Shown here: positions 1 through 59,407 of the stretch, in pieces | Layout: each line of letters starts with the position of its first letter | How positions within the stretch are numbered: the stretch's first letter is position 1 | DNA from: Variovorax sp. OV329 | GTDB taxonomy: Bacteria > Pseudomonadota > Gammaproteobacteria > Burkholderiales > Burkholderiaceae_C | Direction: 5' to 3' | Length of the DNA stretch: 64,000 nucleotides | NCBI RefSeq assembly: GCF_900114785.1 | Contig: NZ_FOUG01000007.1 | Span: 62,001 to 126,000, forward strand | Notes under the pieces: generated by a model | What the model saw: the letters and a program-made list of their open reading frames with translations, nothing else | Told to the model about the DNA's origin: nothing | The model's database searches: none | Program-made: the position numbers and the translations under genes

Positions 1-147
1 GGCGAACTGGCTGGCGGCCCGGGCCAGCTTGGCGACTACTACCTGCGCGTACCGGCCGGCAGCGAAGCGGCCGCCCTCGCCCATGTCCAGGCCGCCCCCA
101 TCGTCCAGGCCGCCTCGCTGTCGCCGGGCGTGCCGCCCCGGGAGTAG
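1..147 (+). CDS. 3' end of an unidentified gene (partial)
   Basis: Frame 1 is open from the left edge to a TAG at 145-147, giving the last 48 residues of a protein that begins upstream of the window. The tail has a short GDYYLRVPAG stretch followed by an Ala/Pro-rich end. This is too little to assign a family. It stops five bases before the caspase-like gene at 153, so the two are probably co-transcribed. Confidence 0.6.
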   Translation, partial: GELAGGPGQLGDYYLRVPAGSEAAALAHVQAAPIVQAASLSPGVPPRE

Positions 148-152
148 CTTCC

Positions 153-980
153 ATGGCCACCCTGCTCAGCCGCCGCGCACTGCTGCGCTGCACCATGGGC
201 GCTGCGGCACTGCGATTCGCGCCCGCCTTCAGCGCTCCCGGCGACAACGAATCGCGCATCGCCCTGGTGATCGGCAACGGCGCCTATCGCACCGCGCCGC
301 TGAAGAACCCCCCCGGTGACGCTGCCGCGGTGTCGTCGGCGCTGCGCGCCCTGGGCTACGACGTGACGCTGCGGCAGAACACCCGGCTGCCCGACCTGAT
401 CGAGTCGCTGCGCGAGTTCTCCCTGCGCGCGCGCAAGGCCTCGGTCCGCCTGCTGTTCTATGCCGGCCACGGGGTGCAGGTCAAAGGCCGCAACTACCTG
501 GTGCCGATCGACGCCGATCCGCAGTCGGAAGAGGAAATCCAGCGGCAGAGCGCGGACGTCGGCGAGTTCGTCGACCGGCTCAGTGCCATCAACTCCGGCG
601 TCAACATCGTGGTGCTCGACGCCTGCCGGGTGAACCCCTTTGCCGGCGGCGTCATCGTGGGGCCGGACGGGCGCCGCCTGAAATTCCGCGGCGCGACACG
701 CGCTGGCCTGGCGACGCTCGATGCACCCGTGGGCACGCTGGTGGCCTTCTCGACCGCGCCCAACGGCGTGGCGCTGGACGGTGCCAGCGGCGAGCACAGC
801 GTCTATGCGCGCCACCTGCTGGCCAACCTGTCGACGCCAGGGCTGCAGATCGAACAGCTGTTCAAGCGGGTGCGCATCGGCGTGGCCGAAGACACGGGGC
901 GCGTCCAGGTGCCCTGGGAGTCTTCAAGCCTGACGGCCGAGTTCTGCTTCAAGACGGACGACAAGGGGCGCTGCGGATAG
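153..980 (+). CDS. caspase-family (peptidase C14) exported protein
   Basis: A 275-residue protein with a caspase-fold catalytic domain. The His is in YAGHGVQ (about residue 108) and the Cys in LDACRVNPF (about 156), the usual dyad of metacaspase-like C14 proteins. IALVIGNGAY near residue 35 is the typical first strand. The N-terminus has Arg-Arg followed by an Ala-rich hydrophobic stretch ending at about residue 28, so it is probably exported. Families of this type cleave after basic or acidic residues, but its substrate is unknown. A second C14 gene lies at 7678. Together they flank the exported-protein cluster between them, apart from the opposite-strand hydrolase at 1007. Confidence 0.88.
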   Translation: MATLLSRRALLRCTMGAAALRFAPAFSAPGDNESRIALVIGNGAYRTAPLKNPPGDAAAVSSALRALGYDVTLRQNTRLPDLIESLREFSLRARKASVRLLFYAGHGVQVKGRNYLVPIDADPQSEEEIQRQSADVGEFVDRLSAINSGVNIVVLDACRVNPFAGGVIVGPDGRRLKFRGATRAGLATLDAPVGTLVAFSTAPNGVALDGASGEHSVYARHLLANLSTPGLQIEQLFKRVRIGVAEDTGRVQVPWESSSLTAEFCFKTDDKGRCG

Positions 981-1006
981 GCAGCCGCCCGGAGCGACGA
1001 CGCCGC

Positions 1007-1951
1007 TCAGGCGTGATCGCCCAGGAAAAGCTCCAACTCGCGCGCGAAGCGCAGGGGTTCGCTGACATGCGGCGAATGGCCCGCATGGGCGTAGACCAGG
1101 ACTTGCGCGTGCTTCACGGTGTCGCGATACCAGGCGTCCAGGGGCAGGCCGGCGTAGTGCGGGCTGCGTGCCCCAAGCACCACGAGCAGCGGCGCGTCCA
1201 TGCGCGACAGCGAGACGCGGAAGTCGGCCTGCGCCATCGACTCGGCAAGGTCCAGCAACGGTTGCAAATCGATGCGGCCCAGGCGCCGGCGCAGCATTCG
1301 CCCGAGCGGCGCATGGTCTCCCAGCTGCCGCCTGAGCCAATCGCCACCGAGCGCACCGACTTCGTTGAGCAGCGTCTCGGCCAGGTCGCGGCGCGCGCCT
1401 GCGATCAGGCCCGACAGCATCGCCGCGCTGCAGCCGCCAAAGAGCCCCAGGCGCCATTCCTCGTCGGTCACGATGCGCGGGGACTGGTCCACCAGCGCGA
1501 CGGCCGCCACCCGTTGCGTGCCGTAGAGGTGCAGATACTGCATCAGCGTGAGCGCCCCCATGGAGTGCCCCACCAGCACCGAACGCTGCAGCCCGAAGTG
1601 GTCGAGCATCTCGGCCAGGTCGGTCGCCAGGCGCGCAAGCGTGATGCCGCCGAGCACCGGCCGGCAGCTGCCATGGCCGCGTGCGTCCCAGGCCAGCACG
1701 CAGTGGCGCCGCGCCAGTTGACGCGCCACCGGCATCCAGTCGCGATGCGAGCAGCCCACGCCATGCACCAGCACCAATGGCGGCCCCTTGCCGAGCACAT
1801 ACACCGGAACCACCTGGCCGTCGCTGGCCGTGAAGCTGTCGTGTTCGGCCGTGCCCGTCGTGCCGAGGCTCACCAACCCGAAATTGCGCAGCGCTTTCCA
1901 TGCGCCACGCAAGCCCGTCAGGCGTGGTGGAGGGGGCGAAGTCTCAGGCAT
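1007..1951 (-). CDS. alpha/beta hydrolase
   Basis: A 314-residue serine hydrolase of the alpha/beta fold. It has an oxyanion-hole motif LVHGVG (about residue 62), a nucleophile elbow GHSMGA (about 128) and a late catalytic His in HAGHSPH (about 294), so the catalytic machinery looks complete. No lid or substrate feature identifies the ester or C-C bond it acts on. It is encoded opposite to its neighbours, converging on the caspase gene and diverging from the repeat-protein gene at 2094, so it is probably a separate transcription unit. Confidence 0.85.
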   Translation of the reverse strand: MPETSPPPPRLTGLRGAWKALRNFGLVSLGTTGTAEHDSFTASDGQVVPVYVLGKGPPLVLVHGVGCSHRDWMPVARQLARRHCVLAWDARGHGSCRPVLGGITLARLATDLAEMLDHFGLQRSVLVGHSMGALTLMQYLHLYGTQRVAAVALVDQSPRIVTDEEWRLGLFGGCSAAMLSGLIAGARRDLAETLLNEVGALGGDWLRRQLGDHAPLGRMLRRRLGRIDLQPLLDLAESMAQADFRVSLSRMDAPLLVVLGARSPHYAGLPLDAWYRDTVKHAQVLVYAHAGHSPHVSEPLRFARELELFLGDHA

Positions 1952-1995
1952 CGCGTGCGAATGCTACGCCGGGGCGCTGCCTGCACGAAATCAAC

Positions 1996-2024
1996 TTGAA
2001 CCGGTTTTGAACCAGTTGCAACCC
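1996..2024 (+). promoter_or_regulatory. shared promoter-like element, copy 1
   Basis: TTGAACC (1996-2002), 15 bases, GCAACCC (2018-2024), then ATGG. The same two blocks with the same 15-base gap recur at 2808, 3586 and 6840. The shape resembles an ECF-sigma promoter (a GAAC-type -35 block with a conserved downstream block), but no sigma factor gene is visible in the window. It lies 70 bases ahead of the first repeat-protein gene. A second TTGAACC lies at 2007-2013. Confidence 0.6.
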
Positions 2025-2093
2025 ATGGGGCGGAAGGCAAGCAATCCCGCGGGCCTCACCCAAGACCCTGTCACCCACCGCAAGGAGTTCATC

Positions 2094-2666
2094 ATGCAAG
2101 TCGTTCGCAAAGCTTCCGTCCTCGTCGCTCTCGGTCTCGCCTGCGCTGCCTCCATGGCCGGCGAAATCGTGGGTTCCACCGTGATTTCCAACGGCTCGAC
2201 CAACACCGCCTCCGGCTTCCTGGCAACGGCGCGCCAGAACATCGGCGTGGCGGAGCAGAACGGCAAGATCACCAACAGCACCGTGATCGCCACCAACGCC
2301 AGCAACAGCGCCTCCGGCTTCCTGTCGACGGCCAACCAGAGCGTCGGCCGCGCCACGCAGAACGGCGAGATCAAGAACAGCACGGTCATCGGCACCAACC
2401 TGACCAACGCCGCATCAGGCTTCCTCAGCACGGCCAACCAGGAAGTGGGTTTTGCCAAGGGCAACGGCAAGGTGGAGAACTCGACGGTGATCGCCAACGG
2501 CGCCACCAACCGCGCCTCCGGCTTCCTGTCCACCGCCAACCAGCAGATCGGCGGCGCGCAAGGCAATGGCGTGCTCCGGAACTCGACGGTGATCGCCACG
2601 AACTCGTCCAACACCGCGAGCGGCTTCCTCTCCACCGCCGAGCAAAGCATCGGCGTTGCCAAGTAA
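2094..2666 (+). CDS. exported 34-residue-repeat protein, copy A (putative fibre subunit)
   Basis: A 190-residue protein. A cleavable signal peptide (about residues 1-22, ending AASMA) is followed by almost five tandem 34-residue repeats. Each begins STVI, contains N-x-ASGFLST-ANQ-x-x-G-x-A and ends NG-x-x-x-N. The repeats are rich in Asn, Gln, Ser, Thr and Gly and contain no Cys. This is the composition of beta-solenoid functional amyloids such as curlin or FapC, although the exact repeat is not theirs. Start: ATG 2094 behind AAGGAGTT. A CsgG-like gene lies 1.4 kb downstream. Inference: a self-assembling surface fibre subunit. It is closely paralogous to the gene at 2905. Confidence 0.8.
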   Translation: MQVVRKASVLVALGLACAASMAGEIVGSTVISNGSTNTASGFLATARQNIGVAEQNGKITNSTVIATNASNSASGFLSTANQSVGRATQNGEIKNSTVIGTNLTNAASGFLSTANQEVGFAKGNGKVENSTVIANGATNRASGFLSTANQQIGGAQGNGVLRNSTVIATNSSNTASGFLSTAEQSIGVAK

Positions 2667-2704
2667 GTCTTGTACTGCCCTTCCCCATTCAGGGAGACAC
2701 CCGA

Positions 2705-2740
2705 CCCGCCCGCGCACTCGCGCCGGCGGGTTTTTCTTTT
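2705..2740 (+). terminator. intrinsic terminator after repeat-protein copy A
   Basis: CCCGCC (2705-2710) pairs with GGCGGG (2725-2730), with an inner CGCG/CGCG stem. The run TTTTTCTTTT follows at 2731-2740. Almost the same hairpin follows the second copy at 3515, so the terminator was duplicated with the gene. Confidence 0.85.
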
Positions 2741-2807
2741 GCGCCTCGAGCACTGTTCCGGTCCATCGACTCTCTGGAAATTTTTTTCAACGCAACCGAG
2801 AAATCGT

Positions 2808-2836
2808 TTGAACCGATTCCGAACTCGCCGCAACCC
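2808..2836 (+). promoter_or_regulatory. shared promoter-like element, copy 2
   Basis: TTGAACC (2808-2814), 15 bases, GCAACCC (2830-2836). Downstream, GGAAGGCAAGCAAT matches copy 1. It lies between the terminator at 2705 and the second repeat-protein gene, so that gene has its own promoter. Confidence 0.6.
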
Positions 2837-2904
2837 ATTGAGCGGGAAGGCAAGCAATTCCGCAAGCCCCACCTCAACCCTGTCACCACATCGAGGAGTT
2901 CATC

Positions 2905-3477
2905 ATGCAAGTCGTTCGCAAAGCTTCCGTCTTCGTCGCTCTGGGTCTCGCCTTCGGTGCCTGCATGGCCGGCGAAATCACGGGCTCGACCGTGCTGTCC
3001 AACGGTGCCAACAACAGCGCGTCTGGCTTCCTGTCCAGCTCGAAGCAGAACATCGGCGTGGCCGAGCAAAACGCCAAGATCACCAACAGCACCGTGATCT
3101 CCACCAACGCCAACAACAGCGCTTCGGGCTTCCTGTCCTCGGCCAACCAGAGCGTCGGTCGCGCCACGCAGAACGGCCAGATCAAGAACAGCACGGTCAT
3201 CGGCACCAACCTGAACAACCGCGCTTCGGGCTTCCTCAGCTCGGCCAACCAGGAAGTGGGTTTCGCCAAGAACAACGGCAAGGTGGAGAATTCGACCGTG
3301 ATCGCCAATGGCGCCAACAACACGGCCAGCGGCTTCCTGTCCTCGGCGAACCAGCAACTCGGCGGCGCGCAAGGCAATGGCGTGCTGAAGAACTCGACGG
3401 TGATCGCGACCGGCTCGAACAACTCGGCCAGCGGCTTCCTGTCCAGCTCCGACCAGGCCGTTGGCGTTGCCAAGTAA
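2905..3477 (+). CDS. exported 34-residue-repeat protein, copy B (putative fibre subunit)
   Basis: A 190-residue tandem paralogue of the gene at 2094, with the same length, signal peptide and five-repeat layout. Its repeats read ASGFLSS-ANQ more often than ASGFLST-ANQ, and its spacer positions are richer in Asn. Several nucleotide blocks are identical between the copies, including the first 30 bases of the coding region. Start: ATG 2905 behind GAGGAGTT. Its own upstream element and terminator make it an independent unit. As for copy A, assembly into an extracellular fibre is inferred from the repeats and the nearby CsgG-like gene. Confidence 0.8.
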   Translation: MQVVRKASVFVALGLAFGACMAGEITGSTVLSNGANNSASGFLSSSKQNIGVAEQNAKITNSTVISTNANNSASGFLSSANQSVGRATQNGQIKNSTVIGTNLNNRASGFLSSANQEVGFAKNNGKVENSTVIANGANNTASGFLSSANQQLGGAQGNGVLKNSTVIATGSNNSASGFLSSSDQAVGVAK

Positions 3478-3514
3478 GTTGCTGCAGCCTGCTTCGTTCA
3501 GGCCTCACCCCGAA

Positions 3515-3546
3515 CCCGCCCGCGCACCCGCGCCGGCGGGTTTTTT
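3515..3546 (+). terminator. intrinsic terminator after repeat-protein copy B
   Basis: CCCGCC (3515-3520) pairs with GGCGGG (3535-3540), followed by six T at 3541-3546. It is nearly the same hairpin as at 2705. Confidence 0.85.
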
Positions 3547-3585
3547 CATGGGCTTCGAAAAGTGTGCCTGCACACGAAATTTCGT

Positions 3586-3614
3586 TTGAACCGTTCGGCC
3601 GCGCGCGGCAACCC
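3586..3614 (+). promoter_or_regulatory. shared promoter-like element, copy 3
   Basis: TTGAACC (3586-3592), 15 bases, GCAACCC (3608-3614), then ATGGAACGGAAGGCAAG, matching copy 1. It precedes the small two-cysteine protein at 3698, whose coding sequence is unrelated to the repeat genes. The element is therefore conserved beyond the gene duplication. Confidence 0.6.
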
Positions 3615-3697
3615 ATGGAACGGAAGGCAAGTCATCGACGTCCTACCGCCAGCGCGCATCCCGGCACTGGCAACCCTTTCCAGCCAGGAGCCCCGCC

Positions 3698-4057
3698 ATG
3701 AACGCCACCCTCGTCCGCGCCACCCGCATCAGCTTCATTGCCGCCCGCATCGTCTTCGCCGCCAGCTCCCTGGGCAGCGGCGCCCATGCATTCGCCGGGC
3801 AGGAGTTGCTTGGCGTCGATGCCAACTTCCGCGCGCGGATCGCCAAGGAGAAGATCCGCATCGCCGCGCAGGAGCGAAAGGCCGACGAGCAGGAACGCAA
3901 GCTCGGCGTGCAGCCGGGCACCTCCGACCAGTCCAGCTGCGGCAGCCAGAGCATCGGCAACGTCGACACCGGCGGGCGCATCGGCGCCGCACCGCGCGAA
4001 GTGTTCGTGTTCGCACCCAATGCCATCAACATCGTCGGCCGCGGCAGCTGCCGCTAA
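3698..4057 (+). CDS. small exported two-cysteine protein
   Basis: A 119-residue protein. It has an N-terminal hydrophobic export signal (about residues 1-32, ending GAHAFA), a charged helical stretch rich in Glu, Arg and Lys (about 42-68), and a C-terminal segment with one Cys near residue 82 and another three from the end, probably a disulfide. Between them are IGNV and a PREVFVF stretch. I do not recognise a named family. It sits 31 bases upstream of the CsgG-like lipoprotein and behind its own copy of the shared element. An accessory role comparable to CsgE/CsgF is possible but purely contextual. Confidence 0.72.
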   Translation: MNATLVRATRISFIAARIVFAASSLGSGAHAFAGQELLGVDANFRARIAKEKIRIAAQERKADEQERKLGVQPGTSDQSSCGSQSIGNVDTGGRIGAAPREVFVFAPNAINIVGRGSCR

Positions 4058-4088
4058 CAGCCCCAAGTCCTTGCACAACGGAGCAGTC

Positions 4089-5717
4089 ATGAACTCGACC
4101 CCCATCGCGCGCTGCCTTGCCCTTGCCGCTGTTGCGGCACTCGCGACCGGCTGCCAGACGCTTGAAGTCAAGAAGCCGACGGTCGAGCAGACCCAGGAAG
4201 TCCGCAAGGGCCCTGAAAGCCGGCCCCAGCGCTCGATCACGGGCTTTTCGCAGGCGCTGCGTTGCATGGACACGCTGCTGCTGGACTACGGCGTGCGCGA
4301 CGTGACCATGCTCACCGAGGAAATCACCGACGAGACCAAGAAGCTCAACGCCGGAACGCGCGACATGCTGATCACCTCGGTGTCGGACCTGTCGCGCCGC
4401 AGCCGCGCGGTGCGGCTGGTGGCCTTCGGCAAGGACACGCTGAACGTCGTCACCTTCCTGGCCTCGGCCCAGAGCGCGTCGGCCTACCAGGCGATCCCGC
4501 TGTACGACATCAAGGGCTCCGTCTCCCAGTTCGACGAGAACCTGATCAAGAACCAGAAGGACATGGGCTTCGGCATCTTCCCCTACCTCAACCTGGGCGT
4601 CGCCAAGGATGCCGCCTCCAGCATGCTGGCCCTGGACCTGAGCGTGATGACCACCAGCGACATGGCCGTGCTGCCCGGCGTGACCTCGCGCAACTCGGTG
4701 GTGATCCTCAAGCAGGGCAGCGGCTTCGATGGCGATGCCGCGTATCACAAGTTCGGCATCAACTACAGCATGGCCCTGGCGCGCTCCGAGGGACAGTCGC
4801 AGGCGCTGCGCGGTCTGGTCGAGCTGGCGGCGGTCGAACTCGTCGGCAAGCTGACCAAGACCCCTTACTGGACCTGCCTGGGCGTGACCGACCCCAAGGC
4901 GAACGACGAAACGCGCCTGGAGATGTTCGACTGGTACCACTCGATGGCCGCGACGCGCATCGAGCTGATCGCCTATTTCCAGAACCAGCTGCGCCGCCGC
5001 GGCTTCTACGACGGCCCGATCGACGGCGAGTTCAATCCAGCCATCGACGAGGCCATCGCCAACTACCGCGCGGCGCTGGGCCTGAGCCGGGAGGCCGTGC
5101 TCAACGAGGACTTCTTCTACGCCTTCCTGGCCGCCGACCACACGAAGATCCCGCGACCGGCGCAGCCGGCTCGCTTCGCAGGGCCGGCCCAGGTGGCGGC
5201 GGCCGCGCCAGCGCCTGCGGCGGCGGCACCCACGGCCACCGCAACTGCGGCGGCGGCGCCAGCCACTGCCGGCCCCGCGGCACCGGCGGCCACGCCGCTG
5301 AAGTTGACGCTAGCGACCTCGAAGCAGCAGACGCGCTTTGCCCGCGGGGAGCCGATCAATCTCTCGCTCGCGCCGTCCCAGGACGCGCATGTCTACTGCT
5401 ACCTGCAGGACGAGGACGCCAAGGTGGTCCGCTTCTTCCCCAACCGCTTTGCCCGCGACTCGCGTATCGCCGCGTCCCAGACGCTCGCACTGCCCGGCGA
5501 CATGCGCTTCCAGCTCTCGATGAATTCGAAGGGCGGCTCCGAGACCATCGCCTGCTTCGCGACGCCCCGTGACGTGGTGGCTTCGCTGCCGCAGGCCCTG
5601 GTGGGCACCGACTTCGAACCCTTGCCCGGCGCCTCGCTCGATGTGATCCGCGCCGCCTTCGTCAAAGCCAGCGGCGGCACGCTCGCCCAGGAGAACCTCC
5701 GTGTACAAGCCAAATGA
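4089..5717 (+). CDS. CsgG-like lipoprotein with peptidoglycan-binding and DUF4384 domains
   Basis: A 542-residue protein. The lipoprotein signal ends ATGC (Cys22). Residues about 45-270 resemble the CsgG/HfaB outer-membrane secretion-pore family: YDIKGSVSQFDEN strand, LALDLSVM strand, and an EGQSQALRGLVELAAVELVGKL helix-type ending (shown in part). Residues about 296-345 form a peptidoglycan-binding_1 helix bundle (LRRRGFYDGPIDG). After an Ala/Pro linker, residues about 404-505 match DUF4384, often found with caspase-like and secretion proteins. CsgG exports curli subunits through the outer membrane; here the pore would also be tethered to the wall. The CsgG match is by eye and should be confirmed by profile search. 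Confidence 0.75.
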   Translation: MNSTPIARCLALAAVAALATGCQTLEVKKPTVEQTQEVRKGPESRPQRSITGFSQALRCMDTLLLDYGVRDVTMLTEEITDETKKLNAGTRDMLITSVSDLSRRSRAVRLVAFGKDTLNVVTFLASAQSASAYQAIPLYDIKGSVSQFDENLIKNQKDMGFGIFPYLNLGVAKDAASSMLALDLSVMTTSDMAVLPGVTSRNSVVILKQGSGFDGDAAYHKFGINYSMALARSEGQSQALRGLVELAAVELVGKLTKTPYWTCLGVTDPKANDETRLEMFDWYHSMAATRIELIAYFQNQLRRRGFYDGPIDGEFNPAIDEAIANYRAALGLSREAVLNEDFFYAFLAADHTKIPRPAQPARFAGPAQVAAAAPAPAAAAPTATATAAAAPATAGPAAPAATPLKLTLATSKQQTRFARGEPINLSLAPSQDAHVYCYLQDEDAKVVRFFPNRFARDSRIAASQTLALPGDMRFQLSMNSKGGSETIACFATPRDVVASLPQALVGTDFEPLPGASLDVIRAAFVKASGGTLAQENLRVQAK

Positions 5718-6111
5718 ATCCCGACCCGCCCATGCGAAGCGCCTGGGCCTGCGCCTGGCCGCCGTGACCGGGCTCGGCCTGGCCGCCGGCGTCCTCGTGC
5801 TGCTGCAACTGCCCCAGGGCGCCACCGCAGGTGTCGCCACCGGTGTCGACGACCGAGTCGCGCCGCGGGTGGCACCTCAGAACCCCGCACCTGGCCAGAA
5901 GTCGCAGGGCACCTACCAATTGCGCTGCTGGCAATACGGCCGATTGCTTTTCGACGAGGGCCCGGTCACGCTGAGCCCCGAGACACGCCAGGGCGCCAGG
6001 CTGGTGGCCTTCGACCGGCACGGGGGCACGCTGATCGTCTCCGACGCCGGTTGGACCACCTGCCTGGCGCGGCCCTCGCCGCCGCCTCCCAACCTCGCGC
6101 TGCCCCGCTGA
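5701..6111 (+). CDS. small membrane-anchored protein, unknown
   Basis: A 136-residue protein starting at GTG 5701, inside the last 17 bases of the CsgG-like gene, with AGGAG eight bases upstream. This implies translational coupling. One membrane helix lies at about residues 18-38, followed by a soluble domain with YQLRCWQYGRLLF and two Cys (CWQ and TTCLA), ending in a Pro-rich tail. No family recognised. Its coupling to the lipoprotein gene suggests a role in the same envelope complex. Confidence 0.72.
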   Translation: MYKPNESRPAHAKRLGLRLAAVTGLGLAAGVLVLLQLPQGATAGVATGVDDRVAPRVAPQNPAPGQKSQGTYQLRCWQYGRLLFDEGPVTLSPETRQGARLVAFDRHGGTLIVSDAGWTTCLARPSPPPPNLALPR

Positions 6112-6141
6112 GGGCCGCGCCGCAAAACCAGGAGATGCGCC

Positions 6142-6843
6142 ATGAAATGCTTCTCTCGCGTGCCGGCCACCGGCTGCGCCGTGGCCCTGGCCGCCGCCCT
6201 TTGCGGACCGGCCCAGGCAGCCACCGAAACCCGCCACGTCGCCGATTTCGACGAAGTCGTGTTCGCCCTCGCCGGCGAAGTGAGCATCGAGCAGGGCAGC
6301 CGCGAGACGCTGACTGTCGAGGCCGAGCCGGCGGTGCTGCGCAAGATCACGACCGAGATTCGCGATCGGCGCCTGTTTATCGGAATGGCGCCAGGCCGCA
6401 TCGAAACCCAGGAGCCCATCCGGATGAAGCTGGGCGTGCAGAACCTGCGCGCCTTCGAATCGCGCACCGCCGGCGTGATCCGCATCGGGGCGCTGCGCTG
6501 CGACACGCTCGCCCTGGTGCTGGCCGGCGGCGGTGCGATGCGCCTCGACCGCCTGGACAACGCGCGCAGCCTGGACGTGCGCATCAGCGGCGCGGGCGAC
6601 ATCGCGGTCGCCGGGGGCAAGGTCGCGGTGCAGCAGCTGGCCATCACCGGCTCGGGCAACTACGTCGCCCCCGGCCTGGCCAGCGAGCGCGCCGAGGTGG
6701 CCATCGACGGAAGCGGCGACGTGCAGCTTGCCGCCAGCACCGCCCTGGCGGTGCGCATCGGCGGCGTCGGCCATGTGCGCTACCGCGGCGACCCGTCGGT
6801 GACGCGTTCCATCCGCGGCATCGGTTCGGTCGAGAAAGATTGA
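6142..6843 (+). CDS. GIN-domain (DUF2807) exported protein
   Basis: A 233-residue protein with a signal peptide (about residues 1-27, ending AQAA) and a single DUF2807 'head GIN' domain, a right-handed beta-solenoid. Typical features are FDEVVFALAGEVSIEQG near the N-terminus and repeated turns GAGD, GSGN, GSGD and IGSV at regular spacing. The family is found in exported proteins and proposed adhesin heads. Its function is not established. It ends at 6843, inside the fourth copy of the shared element. Confidence 0.85.
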   Translation: MKCFSRVPATGCAVALAAALCGPAQAATETRHVADFDEVVFALAGEVSIEQGSRETLTVEAEPAVLRKITTEIRDRRLFIGMAPGRIETQEPIRMKLGVQNLRAFESRTAGVIRIGALRCDTLALVLAGGGAMRLDRLDNARSLDVRISGAGDIAVAGGKVAVQQLAITGSGNYVAPGLASERAEVAIDGSGDVQLAASTALAVRIGGVGHVRYRGDPSVTRSIRGIGSVEKD

Positions 6844-6868
6844 ACCGGCCGGGCGACTCGCGCAACCC
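6840..6868 (+). promoter_or_regulatory. shared promoter-like element, copy 4
   Basis: TTGAACC (6840-6846), 15 bases, GCAACCC (6862-6868), then ATGG. It overlaps the stop codon of the GIN-domain gene. The leader that follows has four near-repeats of AACGCC (6887-6910) before the AAGGAG site of the OmpA-domain gene. This is the most divergent context of the four copies and the best evidence that the element is functional. Confidence 0.6.
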
Positions 6869-6923
6869 ATGGCTACCGACGACCTCAACGCCAATGCCAA
6901 CGCCAACGCCCAAGGAGTTCGAC

Positions 6924-7580
6924 ATGTTCCGCTACCTCAGCACCCTCGTCCTCGCGCTTGCCGCGGCCCTGCTCGCCCCCCAGGTGAAGGCCGAGAAAGT
7001 GCTCATCTACCGCGAAGGCCAGGTCGTGGACCCGCAGGACGTGGCGGACGTGCTCGGCAGGACGCGCGGCATCCGCCTGCTCGATGACGCGCCCGCAGCC
7101 ATTCCGGCGAAGGCCACCGCCCCCGCGCCGGTGTCGATGGCCAAGGTCGCGGCGCGCCCTCCCCGGCCTGCGCCTCCCCCGGCGACCGAGCCTGCGCGCC
7201 CCTCGCGGCCCGCGCCGGTGGCACCCGAAGACACGGTCGCCGACGCATCGGCCCTGTCCCTGCCGGTGCGCTTCGCCTTCGACTCCACCGAGATCCTTCC
7301 AGCCGCACGCACACAGCTCGACGCGCTGGCAGAAGGCATCAAGCTGCTGCCGCCGGGAAGCATCGTCACCGTCGAGGGCCATACCGATGCCGTCGGCAGC
7401 GATGAGTACAACCTGCAGCTGTCGCGCGGCCGCGCCCGTGCGGTGACCGACTACCTGGTGCTCTACCACGGCCTGGACCGCGCGCATCTGAAGACGGTCG
7501 GCTACGGCAAAGGCCATCCGCTCGAAGGCGCCAACCCCAACGCCGCGGTGAACCGCCGGGTGCAGTTCCACGGTGCCTGA
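6924..7580 (+). CDS. OmpA-family outer-envelope protein
   Basis: A 218-residue protein starting at ATG 6924 behind AAGGAGTT. Signal peptide about residues 1-23 (ending VKA), a Pro/Ala-rich linker (about 55-105), then an OmpA/Pal-type peptidoglycan-binding domain from about residue 112. Motifs are RFAFDSTEILP, VEGHTDAVGS, LSRGRARAV and NRRVQF. OmpA domains bind diaminopimelate in the cell wall. The protein could anchor the envelope machinery encoded around it. The gene follows copy 4 of the shared promoter-like element. Confidence 0.9.
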   Translation: MFRYLSTLVLALAAALLAPQVKAEKVLIYREGQVVDPQDVADVLGRTRGIRLLDDAPAAIPAKATAPAPVSMAKVAARPPRPAPPPATEPARPSRPAPVAPEDTVADASALSLPVRFAFDSTEILPAARTQLDALAEGIKLLPPGSIVTVEGHTDAVGSDEYNLQLSRGRARAVTDYLVLYHGLDRAHLKTVGYGKGHPLEGANPNAAVNRRVQFHGA

Positions 7581-7677
7581 GCCGATGCCGCCCTGCCCCG
7601 GGGCGGCGCCCTCCTCTTGTGCCACCGCCGAGCAGCGCCGAGAATGGGACGCGATCGCCGGTGGAGAGCTTCACACT

Positions 7678-8925
7678 GTGTCGAAACCTGTTTCTCTCCC
7701 CTCGCCGGTGCGCAGCATCTTCTCCTGCCGCCGCCGCCTGATTGCCAGCCTCGGCCTCGCACCGGTGGTCCTGAGCGGCATCTGCACCGCGCAGACCCAG
7801 CCGAAGGCCGAAGCGCCCAGGCAACGCCGGATCGCACTCGTGATCGGCAATGGCCGCTACCCCGAGATGCCGCTGAACAACCCGGAGCACGACGCCCGGC
7901 TGGTCGCACGGACCTTGCGCGGCCTGGACTTCGAAGTCGGCGAGTACCTCAATCTCAGCGCCCGTGACTTCAAGCGCGTGCTGCGGGAATTTGCAAAGCG
8001 GATGGACGACGACCAGGTCGCCTCGGTCTTCTACTACGCCGGCCACGGGGTGCAGATCGGCGGTCGCAACTACCTGCTGCCGGTCGACATCGCGCTGCGC
8101 GACGAGGCCGAGGTGCGCGACGAGGCCATCGACGTCCAGGAGGCACTGCTCTCGCATGTCGACCGGGTGCGGCCGCGCGCGCGCATCTTCATCATCGACG
8201 CCTGCCGCAACGACCCCTTCGCCGCGCGCAAGGGCGCGGGGCGCAACGTCAACGGCCTGGCCGAGATGGCCGCGCCCGGTGCCCTCATCGCCTTTTCCGC
8301 CGCCCCCGGCGGGGTCGCCGAGGACGGCCCCCTGGGCGGCAACAGCGTCTACACGCGTCACCTCGCGACCGAGCTGCGTTCGGTGGGCGTCGAGGTCGAG
8401 GACATGATGAAGTCGGTGCGCATCAAGGTGCTGCGCGACACCGCGCAGCGCCAGATCCCCTGGGTCAACACCTCGATGGTGGTGAACTTCATGTTCAACC
8501 CCGGCGCGACCCCGGCGACGGCCCTGGCGGGGCCGAAGCGCAGCCTGCAACTGCTGGTGCAGGCGCAGCGCAGCCTGAACACCGATGCGCGCAACGCCTC
8601 GGCCTCGCTGGCACTGCGGGTCTATGTGCTGCGCGATGCCAGCGGCTTCGAGAAAGCCAGTTTCGACAGCCTCTACGACGACGACGAGGCCACGCTGGGC
8701 GCCAACGTGCTGGTTCGCGAGAGCCTGCACCTGCGTCCCGGCGAAGCACGCGAGCTCGCCCTGGAGCTGAGCAGCGACGCACGCGCCGTGGCCGTGTTCG
8801 GTGCCTTCCGGGAGATCGAGCATTCGCAGTGGCGCGCCACCCTGCCCTTGCCCGCTGGTAGCCTGGCGCCGCGCGCACGCATCGACGCACAGGCACGCCA
8901 GGTGCAGATGGGGTGGGCGCGGTGA
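7678..8925 (+). CDS. caspase-family (peptidase C14) exported protein with C-terminal extension
   Basis: About 415 residues from GTG 7678, with GGAG at 7663. An in-frame GTG at 7573 would add 35 unlikely residues. After a signal-like N-terminus (RRRLIASLGLAPVV), the C14 domain runs about residues 42-280, with YYAGHGVQ and IIDACRNDPF. A beta-rich C-terminal extension of about 130 residues (FEKASFDSLYDD region) is unlike the caspase at 153. It lies between the OmpA-domain gene and tssL, overlapping tssL by four bases (GTGA). Linkage to the secretion genes suggests a shared operon. Substrate unknown. Confidence 0.87.
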   Translation: MSKPVSLPSPVRSIFSCRRRLIASLGLAPVVLSGICTAQTQPKAEAPRQRRIALVIGNGRYPEMPLNNPEHDARLVARTLRGLDFEVGEYLNLSARDFKRVLREFAKRMDDDQVASVFYYAGHGVQIGGRNYLLPVDIALRDEAEVRDEAIDVQEALLSHVDRVRPRARIFIIDACRNDPFAARKGAGRNVNGLAEMAAPGALIAFSAAPGGVAEDGPLGGNSVYTRHLATELRSVGVEVEDMMKSVRIKVLRDTAQRQIPWVNTSMVVNFMFNPGATPATALAGPKRSLQLLVQAQRSLNTDARNASASLALRVYVLRDASGFEKASFDSLYDDDEATLGANVLVRESLHLRPGEARELALELSSDARAVAVFGAFREIEHSQWRATLPLPAGSLAPRARIDAQARQVQMGWAR

Positions 8926-10028
8926 AACAGCCCGACGGCGGATCGGAGGATGTCGGAGAACCGGCCGCGGCCCGAGCGCTGCGCGTCCAGGTGCTTCCCC
9001 TGGTCGCATTGATGGCAGGCCTGCGGGACGCGACGCCGGCCGACCCGGCTGCATTGCGCCGCACGCTGGCCGCCGCGGTGAACCGCTTCGAGGCGGATGC
9101 ACGCGCGGCCGGCATCGACGAGCCCACCGTCGCGGCCGCGAGCTACGTGCTGTGCGCCTGGGGCGACGAGCAGTTCGCCGCTGCGCCCTGGGGTGGCGCG
9201 GAAGGCGCCGGGCTGCTGCAGCGATTCCACGGCGAAGCCCCTGGCAGCGGCAAGCTGCTGCGCCTGCTGGCCCGGCTGGCCGAGAAGCCGCAGGAGCACC
9301 GCACGCTGCTGGAGCTGTTCCACACCTGCCTGAGCCTGGGGATGTGCACGCGCACGGCCTTCGACATTCGCGAGCACGAAACCCTGCGCACGCGCGTGTA
9401 CCTCGCGCTGCAGCAGGTGGCACCGGTTCCGCCGCTGGTGGCCCGCTGGCAGTGCGCCGCAGCCGCTGCCAGGCTGCCACGGGCGCCGCGTCTGGCATTG
9501 CCCGCGGTGCTGCTGATGGGCGTGCTCGCGGTGGCTGTCTACAGCGCCACGCAGCTGCATCTGGCGGCCCGGGTCGATGGCGTGCTGGCGTCCCTCCAGC
9601 AAGTCGTGCCCGTCGGCACCGCCAGGGCGACCCCGGCGGCGGATACGCCGGCGCCGCCACCCAGGCTGGCCTCGAAGCTGCGCGAGGACATCGATGCCGG
9701 GCGCCTGCTGGTCCGCGACGAAGCGCTGCGCAGCGTCGTCGTGCTCGATGCCGACGCGCTGGGCAGCGCCACCGCCCCGCTGAAGCGCGTAGGCGCCGCC
9801 TTGGCCGAGGTGCCGGGCAAGGTCCTCGTCGTCGGCTACACCGACGGCAGCGATCCCCCGACGGCCCGCACGCCATCCGCCTGGCACCAGGCCATGGAAT
9901 GGTCGCGCGGCACCGCCGACATCCTGCGGCCGAAGCTGGGGGACGCCCGGCTGGCGGTCGAGGCCCGCGTCGAGCCCACGGCCGGCAAGCCGCTGCGCCG
10001 GGTCGAGATCGTCCTGTTCCCGCAATGA
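8922..10028 (+). CDS. tssL: type VI secretion inner-membrane protein TssL (DotU/IcmH) with degenerate OmpA-like tail
   Basis: A 368-residue protein from GTG 8922, overlapping the preceding TGA; GTG 8913 is an alternative. The cytoplasmic DotU domain is recognisable by SYVLCAWGDEQ, APWGG, LLQRFHGEAPGSGKLL and LLELFHTCLSLGM. A single C-terminal membrane helix lies at about 191-213. The periplasmic part (about 255-368) resembles an OmpA fold with VVGYTDG, as in extended TssL proteins, but lacks the canonical wall-binding motif. TssL recruits the baseplate to TssM in the T6SS membrane complex. It overlaps tssM by four bases. Confidence 0.9.
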   Translation: MKQPDGGSEDVGEPAAARALRVQVLPLVALMAGLRDATPADPAALRRTLAAAVNRFEADARAAGIDEPTVAAASYVLCAWGDEQFAAAPWGGAEGAGLLQRFHGEAPGSGKLLRLLARLAEKPQEHRTLLELFHTCLSLGMCTRTAFDIREHETLRTRVYLALQQVAPVPPLVARWQCAAAAARLPRAPRLALPAVLLMGVLAVAVYSATQLHLAARVDGVLASLQQVVPVGTARATPAADTPAPPPRLASKLREDIDAGRLLVRDEALRSVVVLDADALGSATAPLKRVGAALAEVPGKVLVVGYTDGSDPPTARTPSAWHQAMEWSRGTADILRPKLGDARLAVEARVEPTAGKPLRRVEIVLFPQ

Positions 10029-13000
10029 AGGTGCCAACCCGCTTCGTGCAGGGCGCCGTGAACCTCGGCGCGGCAGCCGCCCTGCTGTGGTTCGCGGCGC
10101 CCCTGCTCGTGGTGCGCGGCTGGCATCCCTTCGACGACCTGCGCGCACGCGGGGCCCTGCTGGTGCTGGCCGTGCTCCTGCTGGTGGGCCAACGCTGGCT
10201 GCGGGTGCTGCTGGCCCGGCGGCGCAACGAGCGACTGCTCCAGAGCCTGGAGTCCGGCGATGGCAACTCCGAACTGGGCGAGCGCTTCCGCCAGGCGCTC
10301 GCGATGCTGCGCAAGGGGGTGAAGACGCGGGCGAAGCAACGCTGGTGGCAAGGCCGCCGGCAGGTGCAGCAGCTGCCCTGGTACCTGATCATCGGCGCGC
10401 CGGGAGGCGGCAAGACCACCGCGCTGCTGCATTCAGGCCTGCGCTTTCCGCTGGCCGAGGCGCTCGGGCGCGACCCCATCGTGGGCGCCGGCGGCACGCG
10501 CCAATGCGACTGGTGGTTCAGCCAGGACGCCGTGTTCATCGACACGGCAGGCCGCTACACGACGCAGGACAGCGACGCCACGGCCGACGCCCGCGAATGG
10601 CAGCAGTTCCTCGCGCTGCTGCGCCGGCACCGGCCGGTGCAGCCGGTCAACGGCGTGCTCGTGGCCGTCAGCGTGCCCGATCTCCTGCAAGGCGGCACCG
10701 AACTCGCCCGCCAGGCGGATGCGGTCGCGGCACGGCTGGAGGAGCTGCGCCGCGTCCTCGGGCTCGCCTTCCCGATCTACCTGCTGGTCACCAAGGCCGA
10801 CCTGCTGGCCGGCTTCGTGGAAACCTTCGGCGACCTCGATGCCGGGCAGCGCGAGCAGCTGTGGGGCCTGGTGTTCGATGCCGATGCCACCGGCATTCCG
10901 CCCGAGCTCGGGACCGGCCTGGCCGACCTGTCGCAGCGCGTCGCGCGGCGCAGCCGCGATGCGCTGCAGAACGAGCGCACGGCGCGACGCCGCCTGCCGC
11001 TCTACACCTTCGCGGCCCAGTTCGTCGCCCTGCTTCCTCCGCTCACCGCCTTCGTGCGCAAGGCCTTCGCTGGCATTGCCGCACAACCGGCGCAGCAGCT
11101 GCGCGCGATCGCGCTGACCAGTGGCACGCAGGAAGGCAATCCGATCGACCGGGTGATCGGCGAACTCGCACGCCTGCACGACCTGGCCCTCAAGCCCCTG
11201 CCGCGGCCCGACGCCGGTGGCAAGTCCTTCTTCCTGAACTCGGTGCTCAAGCGCCTGGTCATCCCCGAGGCGCCGCTGGCAGGCCAGCGCCTGCAGCGCC
11301 TGCGCTCGCGCCGGCGCGCCGCCATGGCCGTTGCAAGCCTTGCCGGCGTGGCGCTGCTGGGCGCCTGCGCCCTGTGGTGGCAGAGCTACCAGCGCAACCT
11401 GGACTACGTCGATGCGGTGCGCTCGCGCGTCGAGCAGTTGAGCCAGCGCATCGGCTCGCTGGAATCGGCCAGCCTGGAGCAGGTGCTGCCCCTGTATTCG
11501 CTCCTGGAACGCCTGGCCGCGAACGACGGCATCGATCCGCAGCAGCCGCCTGCCGGTTTCGGCTTCGGGCTGTTCCAGGGGCCGCGGTTGGCGCGCTCGG
11601 CGGAACAGGCCTACCGGGAGATGCTCGACCGAAGCCTGGCGCCGCTGCTCGTCGCACGTCTGCAGCGCGACCTGCGCGAGGGCGACGACAGCGCCATGCG
11701 CTACGAGGCATTGCGCGCTTCCCTGATGCTCGCCGAGCCCTCGCGGCTGGTGCGCGGCGAGTTGCAGCCCTGGGTGACCCAGGCGCTGGTGCAGGCCAGC
11801 GGCGCCGGCGAGCGCGAGGAATGGTCGCGCCACGCGGCAACCCTGCTCGAGCGCAGCGGCCTGCCCGAGGCGATGCGCCCGGACGATGCCGGGGTGCAGG
11901 CCGCGCGCAGCGCCCTTGCCGCGGTGCCGCTGGCGCAGCGCGTGCACGAGCGACTGCTGCGCCGCGTTGCCGACGCCGAGCCGCGGCAGGACCTGCCGGC
12001 GCGCCTGGGCGCGACCGGCGCGCTCGCATTCGCGGCGTCGGGCGCCGGCCCGATGCCGGAGCATTCGAGCGCCGGCGACTGGCGGCGCAAGCTGCTGACG
12101 GCGCTCGATGCCACCATGGACGAACTGGCGAACGAGGCGGACTGGGTGCTGGGCGACATCGGCAGCGACGTGCGCCGCCTGCAGAAGGACCGCGCCTGGC
12201 GCGACGAGATCGCCGCACAGGTCGGCAAGCGCCATGCGCAGCGGGTGATCGACGCCTGGTCGCGCCAGCTCGACGCGCTGGAGCTGGCGCCCGGCACCGA
12301 TGCGCAGGGTGCTTCGCGCCAGGCCACGGAACTGACGGCGCCCGACTCGCCGCTGCGCCGTCTCTTCACGCTGCTGGCCGACGAGTTCAGCGCGACGCCC
12401 CAGGGCGCCAGCCCGGCCGAGGGCGCCTTCAACGACCTGCTGCGTGCGCGCTTCGGTGCCCTGGGCGACTACGCAGCAGGCGCCGGGCCGCAGGCACTGG
12501 ACCGCCTTCACGCCCTGTCCAGCGGCAAGCGCGACGAGGCCGCCAATGCCGAACTGGACGCGACCTTGCGTGCAGAGGCAGCCCGCGCGCCCGCCGCGCT
12601 GCGCAAGGTCTACGTCGGCCTCGGCAGCTCGATCCGCTCGCGCGGCGGCGCCAAGCCCGGTTTCGAACAGGCCCTGGCGGAACTCGCGCAGACCTGCAGC
12701 GCCCTGACGCGCGAGCGCTTTCCCCTCGGCTCGGCCGCGTCACGCGACATGGCGCCCTCCGACTTCGCGCGGCTGTTCGGGCCGGGCGGCCTGTTCGACG
12801 AATTCAGGCGCAGCCAGCTCGGTGAACGCGTCGACACCTCCAGCCGTCCGTGGAAGCTGCGCGGCACGCCCGCCGATGCCAGCCTTCCCGCCGCCTTCGA
12901 GCAGGCGGCGGCCATCGGCACCCTGTTCTTTCCCGGCGGTGCGCCCATGCCGGAACTCAGGCTGCGCATCACGCCCCGGCGCATGGATGCCGACCTGCTG

Positions 13001-13348
13001 CAGTTCAGCATCGATGTCGACGGCCAGCTGCTGCGCTTCGAGAACGGCCCGCCGCGCGCCAAGGAGCTGGCGTGGCCAGGGCCGGCCTCGACCCAGAAGG
13101 TGCTGATGCGCATCCTGCCGCCCGGCCCCTCCGGCGTGGGCGCCGAGGTCCACGAAGGACCGTTCGCGTGGCTTCGGGTGCTGCTGCGTGCCGACTGGAA
13201 GGGCGAGCACGGGGCGCCGGCGCGCCTGAGCCTGGTCGTCGACAAGCGCACCCTGGAGGTCGACGCAAGTGCCGCCGGCGCGCCCGAAGCCGATATCTGG
13301 ACCCTGCGGGAACTGGCGCGCTTTCGCTGCCCGCAAGCAACATGGTGA
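10025..13348 (+). CDS. tssM: type VI secretion membrane-complex protein TssM (IcmF)
   Basis: A 1107-residue protein of normal family length. Two N-terminal membrane helices (about 10-32 and 42-60) precede an IcmF NTPase domain with Walker A GAPGGGKTT (about 124) and Walker B-type IDTAGRYTT. A third helix lies at about 432-452. A long periplasmic region follows, ending in the IcmF C-terminal beta domain (FSIDVDGQLLRFENGPP). TssM spans the inner membrane and, with TssJ, reaches the outer membrane. No tssJ is present here. It overlaps tagF by seven bases. Confidence 0.95.
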   Translation: MKVPTRFVQGAVNLGAAAALLWFAAPLLVVRGWHPFDDLRARGALLVLAVLLLVGQRWLRVLLARRRNERLLQSLESGDGNSELGERFRQALAMLRKGVKTRAKQRWWQGRRQVQQLPWYLIIGAPGGGKTTALLHSGLRFPLAEALGRDPIVGAGGTRQCDWWFSQDAVFIDTAGRYTTQDSDATADAREWQQFLALLRRHRPVQPVNGVLVAVSVPDLLQGGTELARQADAVAARLEELRRVLGLAFPIYLLVTKADLLAGFVETFGDLDAGQREQLWGLVFDADATGIPPELGTGLADLSQRVARRSRDALQNERTARRRLPLYTFAAQFVALLPPLTAFVRKAFAGIAAQPAQQLRAIALTSGTQEGNPIDRVIGELARLHDLALKPLPRPDAGGKSFFLNSVLKRLVIPEAPLAGQRLQRLRSRRRAAMAVASLAGVALLGACALWWQSYQRNLDYVDAVRSRVEQLSQRIGSLESASLEQVLPLYSLLERLAANDGIDPQQPPAGFGFGLFQGPRLARSAEQAYREMLDRSLAPLLVARLQRDLREGDDSAMRYEALRASLMLAEPSRLVRGELQPWVTQALVQASGAGEREEWSRHAATLLERSGLPEAMRPDDAGVQAARSALAAVPLAQRVHERLLRRVADAEPRQDLPARLGATGALAFAASGAGPMPEHSSAGDWRRKLLTALDATMDELANEADWVLGDIGSDVRRLQKDRAWRDEIAAQVGKRHAQRVIDAWSRQLDALELAPGTDAQGASRQATELTAPDSPLRRLFTLLADEFSATPQGASPAEGAFNDLLRARFGALGDYAAGAGPQALDRLHALSSGKRDEAANAELDATLRAEAARAPAALRKVYVGLGSSIRSRGGAKPGFEQALAELAQTCSALTRERFPLGSAASRDMAPSDFARLFGPGGLFDEFRRSQLGERVDTSSRPWKLRGTPADASLPAAFEQAAAIGTLFFPGGAPMPELRLRITPRRMDADLLQFSIDVDGQLLRFENGPPRAKELAWPGPASTQKVLMRILPPGPSGVGAEVHEGPFAWLRVLLRADWKGEHGAPARLSLVVDKRTLEVDASAAGAPEADIWTLRELARFRCPQATW

Positions 13349-15898: not shown

Positions 15899-15911
15899 GG
15901 TGCGCTCGTGT

Positions 15912-17372: not shown

Positions 17373-17385
17373 GGGTGGGTCGGGC

Positions 17386-18258: not shown

Positions 18259-18315
18259 GGGGTTCTCCAGTCCTGTCCGTCTGTTTCCCTGAGTTGCGGC
18301 AAGACGCGCGCCGGT

Positions 18316-49048: not shown

Positions 49049-53051
<4,003 letters not shown>

Positions 53052-53064
53052 GAGGAGCTTGCCC

Positions 53065-56403: not shown

Positions 56404-56429
56404 CATAGACAGGAAACGAGGAGGACGCC

Positions 56430-57265: not shown

Positions 57266-57269
<4 letters not shown>
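56430..57269 (+). CDS. multi-helix membrane protein with mechanosensitive-channel-type TM repeats
   Basis: A 279-residue protein. About five membrane helices in the first 215 residues, including two repeats of the TM-helix type found in conserved membrane channel proteins (LPRVLLAVAVVVVGWLVAKAA in two parts and IPNVIVALVIVAFGAYFARFVG in two parts). The C-terminal 65 residues are Pro/Gly-rich and disordered. No MscS beta domain follows, so it lacks the canonical cytoplasmic part. It sits inside the trehalose/glucan operon, overlapping glgX by four bases, so a role in osmotic stress is a reasonable inference. Confidence 0.78.

Positions 57270-59403
<2,134 letters not shown>

Positions 59404-59407
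<4 letters not shown>

What the first reader, a model, noticed from the sequence alone, without database searches (positions are those of the whole stretch)
2094..7580. A curli-like secretion and fibre system with a new domain arrangement
Seen: two exported 34-residue-repeat proteins, a two-Cys secreted protein, a lipoprotein with CsgG-like, peptidoglycan-binding and DUF4384 domains, a GIN-domain protein and an OmpA-domain protein, all on one strand. Known: CsgG/HfaB lipoproteins export amyloid or holdfast subunits. Inferred: this is a fibre-secretion locus in which the pore is anchored to the cell wall and the subunits are not standard curlins. No CsgE, CsgF or CsgD is recognisable. I know of no named system with this set.
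Basis: partly seen in the sequence, partly recalled or inferred. Interest (0 to 1): 0.85.

Follow-up and report, generated by a model that had tools for sequence, protein, structure and literature searches.

The report
Curli-like export locus with sigma switch
A bacterium related to Variovorax carries a gene cluster that looks like a distant cousin of the curli fibre system: an outer-membrane pore of the curli-pore fold with a wall-binding domain, repeat proteins predicted to fold into regular coils, and what appears to be a switch of its own that turns the set on together.

Summary
LP has no usable Pfam CsgG match, but its AlphaFold2 model hits E. coli CsgG first (Foldseek E 2.4e-6; VIA Z 14.3 over 179 residues), and a profile comparison agrees (E 2.9e-6); PG_binding_1 and DUF4384 domains follow. 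The repeat protein models as a confident beta-solenoid (pLDDT 91) with 34-residue repeats; the genome has no Curlin_rpt, CsgE or CsgF match. New here: an ECF sigma/anti-sigma pair just upstream, and a TTGAACCG-N14-GCAACCCATG element before four units of this locus and nowhere else in the genome at under 3 mismatches; in related loci it tracks the sigma pair (51 hits against 0 control). The OmpA unit runs into a caspase-TssJ fusion, TssL and TssM without sheath genes. A repeat/two-Cys/LP/CWQ core recurs in other Proteobacteria, mostly without TssLM. Best reading: a CsgG-type exporter of non-curlin solenoid subunits, a new variant of a known kind. Export, fibres and amyloid are not shown.

The parts
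1..147 (+). 3' end of the anti-sigma-like gene (whole gene C39:61530-62147, i.e. window -470 to 147); the ECF sigma gene lies just before it (C39:60697-61293, window -1303 to -707)
   Evidence: Sigma70_r2 E 7.7e-13 and r4_2 E 5.1e-12; anti-sigma: NCBIfam E 1.2e-7, below its cut-off, and no Pfam match; one membrane span by eye; coordinates
153..980 (+). caspase (Peptidase_C14) with twin-arginine-like signal and GHG/DAC motifs
   Evidence: Pfam E 1.3e-35; signal and motifs read from the sequence
1996..2027 (+). promoter-like element (TTGAACCG-N14-GCAACCCATG) before repeat gene 1
   Evidence: 0 mismatches; only this locus has copies with 0-1 mismatch in the genome
2094..2666 (+). repeat protein 1: signal sequence + five 34-residue repeats (the last cut to 29), predicted beta-solenoid; candidate surface subunit
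2716..2731 (+). terminator-like stem with T-run after repeat gene 1
   Evidence: 4 such sites in 1900-7700, 4.9 expected by shuffling, so weak alone; one search shows the stretch recurring after repeat gene 2
2808..2839 (+). promoter-like element before repeat gene 2
   Evidence: 1 mismatch
2905..3477 (+). repeat protein 2: second copy, 82% identical to repeat protein 1
3526..3541 (+). terminator-like stem with T-run after repeat gene 2
3586..3617 (+). promoter-like element before the two-Cys/lipoprotein unit
   Evidence: 0 mismatches
3698..4057 (+). two-Cys protein with signal sequence; both Cys invariant in the 31 aligned sequences
   Evidence: no Pfam family
4089..5717 (+). lipoprotein LP: Cys22 lipobox, CsgG fold (47-267), PG_binding_1 (297-340), DUF4384 (417-494) within an Ig-like region of about 403-542
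5701..6111 (+). small 'CWQ' protein (RCWQ-x-G motif and a second Cys further on, seen in the relatives listed); no known family
6142..6843 (+). GIN-domain (DUF2807) protein
6840..6871 (+). promoter-like element before the OmpA / caspase-TssJ / TssL / TssM unit
   Evidence: 0 mismatches
6924..7580 (+). OmpA-domain protein
7573..8925 (+). caspase (C14) fused to a TssJ domain; longest ORF, real start perhaps near 7678 (twin-arginine-like signal)
   Evidence: C14 E 1.3e-36, TssJ E 9.7e-29; TssJ part also found in 9 Variovorax loci
8913..10028 (+). TssL (DotU)
10028..13348 (+). TssM (IcmF)
   Evidence: one of three IcmF_C matches in the genome
13893..17468 (-). PP2C phosphatase, T6SS FHA protein and Ser/Thr kinase; neighbours in some relatives, not core
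   Evidence: PP2C and FHA in 7 of 92 loci, kinase in 3 of 92 (many loci are too short to show them)

Best explanation
The locus is a CsgG-type (type VIII-like) export system for non-curlin beta-solenoid subunits, run as one regulon by its own ECF sigma factor. Proposed working: an envelope signal releases the ECF sigma from its membrane anti-sigma; the sigma reads TTGAACCG-N14-GCAACCCATG and turns on four units: repeat gene 1, repeat gene 2 (each alone, so subunits can be made in excess), two-Cys/LP/CWQ/GIN, and OmpA/caspase-TssJ/TssL/TssM. LP, lipidated and held to the wall by its peptidoglycan-binding domain, forms the outer-membrane pore; the repeat proteins leave unfolded through it and stack on the cell surface; the two-Cys protein, and perhaps CWQ and GIN, serve as chaperone, gate or nucleator in place of CsgE/F/B. 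Shown by computation: genes, predicted folds, recurring gene set, motif-sigma association. Inferred: pore function, subunit export, stacking, recognition of the motif by this sigma, the roles of the small proteins, the caspases and TssJLM.
For: LP model (pLDDT 82, 60-row alignment): the best 18 Foldseek rows are all CsgG or curli-complex entries (best E 2.4e-6, prob 1.0); VIA Z 14.3, 179 aligned, rmsd 4.7, with CsgG rows at 12.6-14.3 above PelC at 10.9. hhalign of the LP family against E. coli CsgG: prob 88, E 2.9e-6; against CsgF: prob 18, E 0.0013 (one-target comparisons). An HMM of the LP family ranks CsgG first among six E. coli Csg proteins, but weakly (11 bits, E 3.9e-5 for six sequences; CsgF next at 0.01). 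Repeat model: pLDDT 91.4, pTM 0.83; the CsgA fibril is among the best VIA rows (Z 9.1). Recurring set: of the best 80 loci kept, 48 have a two-Cys gene just upstream of LP and 41 a CWQ gene just downstream; repeat proteins flagged in 36 of 80 loci. Regulation: ECF/anti-sigma pair adjacent; motif at <=3 mismatches 51 against 0 (reversed pattern) in 22 loci with the pair, 8 against 1 in 70 without (L044 repeats L073, so 49 hits in 21 distinct loci, 17 of them with at least one).
Against: LP has no Pfam CsgG match. FlgT, PelC, TraT and LptE share parts of the fold, so fold alone does not prove a protein-secreting pore, and the tip of the first hairpin (156-172) is modelled with pLDDT under 50. 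The repeat proteins show no sequence kinship with CsgA (prob 0.1) or Curlin_rpt (0 of 22); Foldseek finds nothing at E<0.001, and the CsgA row has rmsd 8.0 and ties with an IgA1 protease and near ties with other beta-helices, so amyloid is not implied. PMC10192328 (passages read) warns that solenoids are common in non-fibre proteins. The motif was taken from this window, ten of the 17 loci that carry it are Variovorax, close enough to keep it by descent, and four distinct loci with a sigma pair have none at <=3 mismatches (L096, L127, L129, L131). Many LP relatives (Azospirillum, Acidovorax L110, others) lack recognisable parts of the set. No expression or microscopy data.
Confidence: 0.68

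Rival explanations
1. A surface-anchor or adhesin system in the style of Caulobacter HfaABD: the CsgG-like LP exports a few repeat adhesins that form short anchor multimers for a polysaccharide, not long fibres.
For: HfaB is CsgG-like, HfaA curlin-like and HfaD adhesin-like, and HfaB is needed for their surface location (PMC6707917, passages read): also a CsgG-like pore with two different exported partners. GIN and Ig-like domains would suit surface adhesion (inference).
Against: No holdfast gene is named among the Pfam hits of the window ORFs scanned, but there was no dedicated search; Hfa sequences were not compared. Two near-identical subunit genes with their own promoter-like elements suggest bulk subunits.
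Confidence: 0.15
2. An accessory set of the T6SS: the TssJLM complex, caspase and kinase/FHA/PP2C form the main machine, and the repeat and LP proteins are its envelope adaptors or contact sensors.
For: OmpA, caspase-TssJ, TssL and TssM follow one promoter-like element with overlapping or close genes; TssL and/or TssM are in 9 of the 11 Variovorax loci (L064 and L067 end too early) and in L073, L075 and L077.
Against: TssL occurs in 11 and TssM in 11 of 80 loci, while the two-Cys gene is next to LP in 48; the genome's two TssC lie on other contigs.
Confidence: 0.1
3. A polysaccharide-export lipoprotein (PelC-like) with solenoid proteins that bind or cut the glycan.
For: PelC is the next best fold after CsgG (Z 10.9); several glycan-acting beta-helices are among the VIA rows for the repeat model.
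Against: CsgG scores higher and is aligned over residues 13-256 of a 246-residue chain (6l7a_A); no glycan synthase among the Pfam hits for 153-19269.
Confidence: 0.05

Closest known systems
Curli / type VIII secretion (CsgBAC-DEFG, E. coli)
   Same: CsgG-fold lipoprotein; N/Q/G/S-rich repeat subunits with signal sequences, predicted as beta-solenoid; subunit genes in units apart from the pore gene
   Different: LP adds PG-binding and DUF4384 domains; repeats of 34 residues (30-37 in most relatives flagged) against 23 +/- 5 in curlins (PMC10192328, passages); no Curlin_rpt, CsgE or CsgF match in the genome (CsgC only compared directly; CsgD not tested); ECF sigma pair beside it; two-Cys and CWQ proteins of no known family
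HfaABD holdfast anchor (Caulobacter)
   Same: CsgG-like HfaB with two surface-exposed partners (PMC6707917, passages)
   Different: Hfa sequences were not compared here, so kinship and domain make-up are open
Type VI secretion membrane complex (TssJLM)
   Same: TssJ domain, TssL and TssM encoded in the last unit, FHA/kinase/PP2C beside it
   Different: no TssC on this contig; TssJ is fused to a caspase; absent from most loci of the core
FapC functional amyloid (Pseudomonas)
   Same: repeat subunit with a solenoid-like solved structure (9u4u_A, only Foldseek rank 42, E 3.4)
   Different: Fap uses the FapF porin, not a CsgG-fold lipoprotein (recalled)

Membership tests
Curli (type VIII secretion) | CsgG-fold outer-membrane lipoprotein | tested here: met
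   lipobox Cys22 invariant in the 12-row alignment; Foldseek and VIA top rows CsgG; hhalign E 2.9e-6; membrane location itself not tested
Curli (type VIII secretion) | match to Pfam CsgG PF03783 above cut-off | tested here: not met
   no match at E<=1 for P0004; 1 of 12 members at E 0.072; the genome's one PF03783 match is another gene
Curli (type VIII secretion) | curlin repeats (PF07012) in the subunit | tested here: not met
   0 matches in the genome at E<=0.001, E. coli control positive; 0 of 22 diverse repeat proteins at E<=0.1; hhalign to CsgA prob 0.1
Curli (type VIII secretion) | CsgE and CsgF partners | tested here: not met
   no match in the genome to PF10614 or PF10627 at E<=0.001, E. 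coli control positive
Curli (type VIII secretion) | beta-solenoid subunit | tested here: inconclusive
   predicted solenoid pLDDT 91; CsgA fibril Z 9.1, rmsd 8.0, tied with other beta-helices
[quoted passage not shown]
   needs staining and microscopy
HfaABD holdfast anchor | HfaA/HfaD sequence kinship of the exported partners | not tested
   no named Hfa sequence was fetched
Type VI secretion system | TssJ, TssL and TssM | tested here: met
Type VI secretion system | sheath gene TssC in the locus | tested here: not met
   the only two VipB/TssC matches in the genome are on contigs C26 and C33, the window on C39
ECF sigma regulon | adjacent anti-sigma and a shared promoter-like element before target genes | tested here: met
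ECF sigma regulon | recognition of the element by this sigma factor | not testable with these tools
   needs reporter or in vitro transcription work

The most novel reading that the evidence does not exclude
A trans-envelope fibre machine: a T6SS-derived TssJLM complex, with a periplasmic caspase built into TssJ, is coupled to a wall-anchored CsgG-type pore under one ECF sigma, so that the inner-membrane complex powers or gates export and the caspases process subunits or the anti-sigma. It would be a T6SS membrane complex put to use without a sheath.
Probability: 0.15. Interest if true: 0.88.

Novelty: new variant of a known kind. Interest (0 to 1): 0.68.

Why it matters
Two surveys of curli whose passages I read used curlin and Csg profiles (PMC3521004, PMC10192328), and the 2012 one counted only two curli systems in Betaproteobacteria. 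If this reading is right, a second kind of CsgG-type system, missed by those profiles, occurs in Variovorax, Azoarcus, Rhodocyclaceae, Noviherbaspirillum, Accumulibacter and others, some of them floc- or plant-associated bacteria (recalled), and gives named genes to test for their matrix proteins. It would also show what else can feed a CsgG-type pore, how such a pore may be tied to the wall, and an ECF switch dedicated to it. The TssJLM-caspase annex asks whether T6SS membrane complexes are reused outside T6SS.

Tried and rejected
Pfam, NCBIfam and PDB-sequence searches for CsgG in LP: nothing usable; the case rests on fold and hhalign. PDB-sequence search with the repeat protein: no match under E 0.028. 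GLUG motif in the repeat proteins (E 0.012 and 0.003, below cut-off): taken as a generic repeat echo. Chance-like Pfam rows among the 22 diverse repeat proteins (17 families, best E 1.8e-5, none in more than 3 members) were set aside. Two-Cys family against CsgE, CsgF, CsgC: no link. FapC and pentapeptide solenoids: only weak Foldseek rows. The minus-strand ORFs over the repeat genes were taken as mirror frames. A class-wide survey found LP in 6 of 274 genomes at E<=1e-20, own genome included: sparse. The family survey found a match in 22 of 60, own genome included, but several of these cover only part of the protein. Sigma-70 promoter scan of 1900-7700: 0 sites. A first motif pattern with the wrong spacer gave 0. 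Holdfast and polysaccharide genes were not searched for as such.

A2 holds P0004 and 59 of the 80 loci, picked by me (shortened, split or near-duplicate ones mostly left out). A4 holds P0003, 26 of the 55 loci with a two-Cys hit, and four more picked by eye (L048, L050, L053, L056; L056 was also an HMM hit). A3 holds 17 repeat proteins, two of them the window's. A5 had 23 rows, one a mistaken 1-base reference; 22 were scanned.
Full report
Observation. The two repeat proteins are 190 residues long, 82% identical, and carry five 34-residue repeats each, the last cut to 29; identity at shift 34 is 83 of 131 and 86 of 131 positions, against shuffle maxima of 28 and 26. They are the only two matches in the genome. 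Across 17 aligned sequences, two of them from the window, one Asn and one Gln per repeat are invariant at 34-residue spacing (N37, 71, 105, 139, 173; Q48, 82, 116, 150, 184).

The pore. For the lipoprotein (LP), Pfam gives PG_binding_1 and DUF4384 but no CsgG; of 12 relatives scanned at E<=1, DUF4384 is found in 12, PG_binding_1 in 10 and CsgG in 1 at E 0.072. The genome's only PF03783 match lies elsewhere, on contig C24. The AlphaFold2 model from a 60-row alignment (pLDDT 82; under 50 at 1-3, 21-28, 156-172 and 389-392) changes the picture: the first 18 Foldseek rows are all CsgG or curli-complex entries, best E 2.4e-6, and VIA gives Z 14.3 over 179 residues (rmsd 4.7) for model 47-267 against CsgG 6l7a_A, with PelC next at 10.9. 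Model strands 139-163, 167-188, 194-209 and 214-231 are laid out as two long hairpins, the tip of the first with low confidence. hhalign against E. coli CsgG, fetched, gives E 2.9e-6 and probability 88, against E 0.0013 and 18 for CsgF. An HMM of the family also ranks CsgG first among the six E. coli Csg proteins tested, but at only 11 bits. The C-terminal part aligns with Ig-like domains such as those of RbmA and GbpA (Z 8.0-8.8), a common fold.

The subunits. The repeat model is confident (pLDDT 91.4, pTM 0.83; residues 12-19 of the signal sequence are low) and shows regularly spaced strands in every repeat, which I read as a beta-solenoid. Foldseek finds no match at E<0.001. VIA lists an IgA1 protease helix (Z 9.4) and the CsgA fibril (Z 9.1, 100 aligned, rmsd 8.0) as ties, with other beta-helices close behind. 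So the fold fits a stackable subunit but does not single out amyloid. No sequence link to CsgA was found. A crude script flagged repeat-bearing proteins with a signal-like stretch in 36 of 80 loci (52 of 1285 gene calls, 47 of them with a period of 30-37; a few are mirror frames or not next to LP). A diverse set of them has a consensus with QxGxxN, which recalls the curlin motif; that resemblance is from memory and was not scored.

The recurring set. A scan of one genome for each of 84,980 species found 284 relatives and kept the best 80 loci, from Variovorax through Azoarcus, Rhodocyclaceae, Noviherbaspirillum and Thiodiazotropha to Azospirillum and Skermanella. Among these 80, a two-Cys gene sits just upstream of LP in 48 and a CWQ gene just downstream in 41, and the locus also holds a hit to OmpA in 53, caspase in 45, repeat protein in 37, GIN in 33, ECF sigma in 32, anti-sigma in 21, TssL in 11 and TssM in 11. 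These counts come from HMMs built on the same loci, many loci are cut short by contig ends, OmpA, caspase and ECF are large families, and some hits (repeat and ECF above all) are mirror or overlapping frames; they show association, not exact frequencies. Both Cys of the two-Cys protein are invariant in 31 sequences.

The switch. An ECF sigma gene (window -1303 to -707) and an anti-sigma-like gene (-470 to 147) lie upstream. The element TTGAACCG-N14-GCAACCCATG occurs at 1996, 2808, 3586 and 6840 with 0 or 1 mismatch; with a fifth hit of 3 mismatches at 18288 (-) that makes 5, against 0.07 expected. Elsewhere in the genome there is no copy with under 3 mismatches, and the six hits at 3 mismatches, 18288 among them, are no more than the control's 10. 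A weak copy (5 mismatches) lies at -670, between the two regulator genes, where several Variovorax relatives have one with 2-3 (L062, L063, L069, L070, L072). In loci with both regulators the motif at <=3 mismatches is found 51 times against 0 for the reversed pattern in 438 kb; in the other 70 loci 8 against 1 in 1.17 Mb. L044 repeats L073, so 49 hits are distinct, in 17 of 21 distinct loci; ten of the 17 are Variovorax. Fifteen plus-strand hits lie in seven non-Variovorax loci, before repeat, OmpA, GIN, ECF or caspase genes or with no labelled gene behind them. Four distinct loci with the pair have none (L096, L127, L129, L131).

The annex. After OmpA come a caspase-TssJ fusion, TssL and TssM. 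The TssJ part of the fusion recurs in nine loci, all Variovorax. The genome has three IcmF_C matches and two TssC, neither TssC on this contig. Both caspases begin with twin-arginine-like sequences and keep His/Cys motifs, so they may work in the periplasm; that is inference.

Mechanism and verdict. The best-supported reading is an ECF-controlled, CsgG-type exporter of non-curlin solenoid subunits, in which LP is pore and wall anchor in one. It would work like curli secretion; it is not filed as a member of the curli family, because Curlin_rpt, CsgE and CsgF were tested and not met. The holdfast-anchor reading, with HfaB as the CsgG-like pore (PMC6707917, passages), is the main rival. Literature: CsgG with DUF4384, 0 papers; ECF sigma factor with CsgG and caspase, 0; one search returned 3 papers, 3, 2 and 1, none on such a locus or on a TssJ-caspase link judging by title and start of abstract only. 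DUF4384 alone is in 5 papers, seen in the listing. The library is open-licence PubMed Central only. PMC3521004, PMC6707917, PMC10192328 and PMC12019908 were read as passages; the last, an Accumulibacter secretome study, reports a curlin from Flavobacterium in the passages seen.

Noticed in passing
window 7573-8925: Caspase domain fused to TssJ with a twin-arginine-like signal and no clear lipobox: unlike the usual lipidated TssJ (recalled).
   Followed up: partly
window 18288-18319 (-): A 3-mismatch copy of the promoter-like element about 30 bases before the Tll0287-HAMP gene that heads the kinase/FHA/PP2C genes; no more than chance at this stringency in the genome, but well placed.
   Followed up: partly
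window 43035-44195: Tle1-like phospholipase (T6SS effector family), with no sheath gene on this contig.
   Followed up: no
window 17386-18258 and 15912-17468: Tll0287-HAMP protein next to a Ser/Thr kinase; hits to both also near TssL in L075.
   Followed up: no
window 49049-64000: Alpha-glucan cluster: GlgE, alpha-amylase-family and MalQ-type enzymes.
   Followed up: no
L058:10423-13995 and L059:4480-8124: Proteins of about 1200 residues, repetitive by eye, beside a 26-28% LP relative: perhaps a further variant with a giant subunit.
   Followed up: no
L117, L121, L123, L124, L126, L130, L132, L134, L138-L140: Azospirillum loci carry two LP hits, an OmpA and a CWQ hit but no two-Cys or repeat gene by these HMMs.
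   Followed up: no
L087, L088, L089, L091, L093 (about 12.6-13.9 kb): A second, longer repeat protein (272-391 residues, period 30-31) downstream of GIN: maybe a minor or tip subunit.
   Followed up: partly
L045, L046 (LP about 40% identical): LP next to a secreted protein with several Cys and a large regulator-like protein instead of repeat genes (judged by eye).
   Followed up: no
L001 (G000:C24:105960-106481): The genome's only Pfam CsgG match, a separate gene; its neighbours were listed but not annotated.
   Followed up: partly
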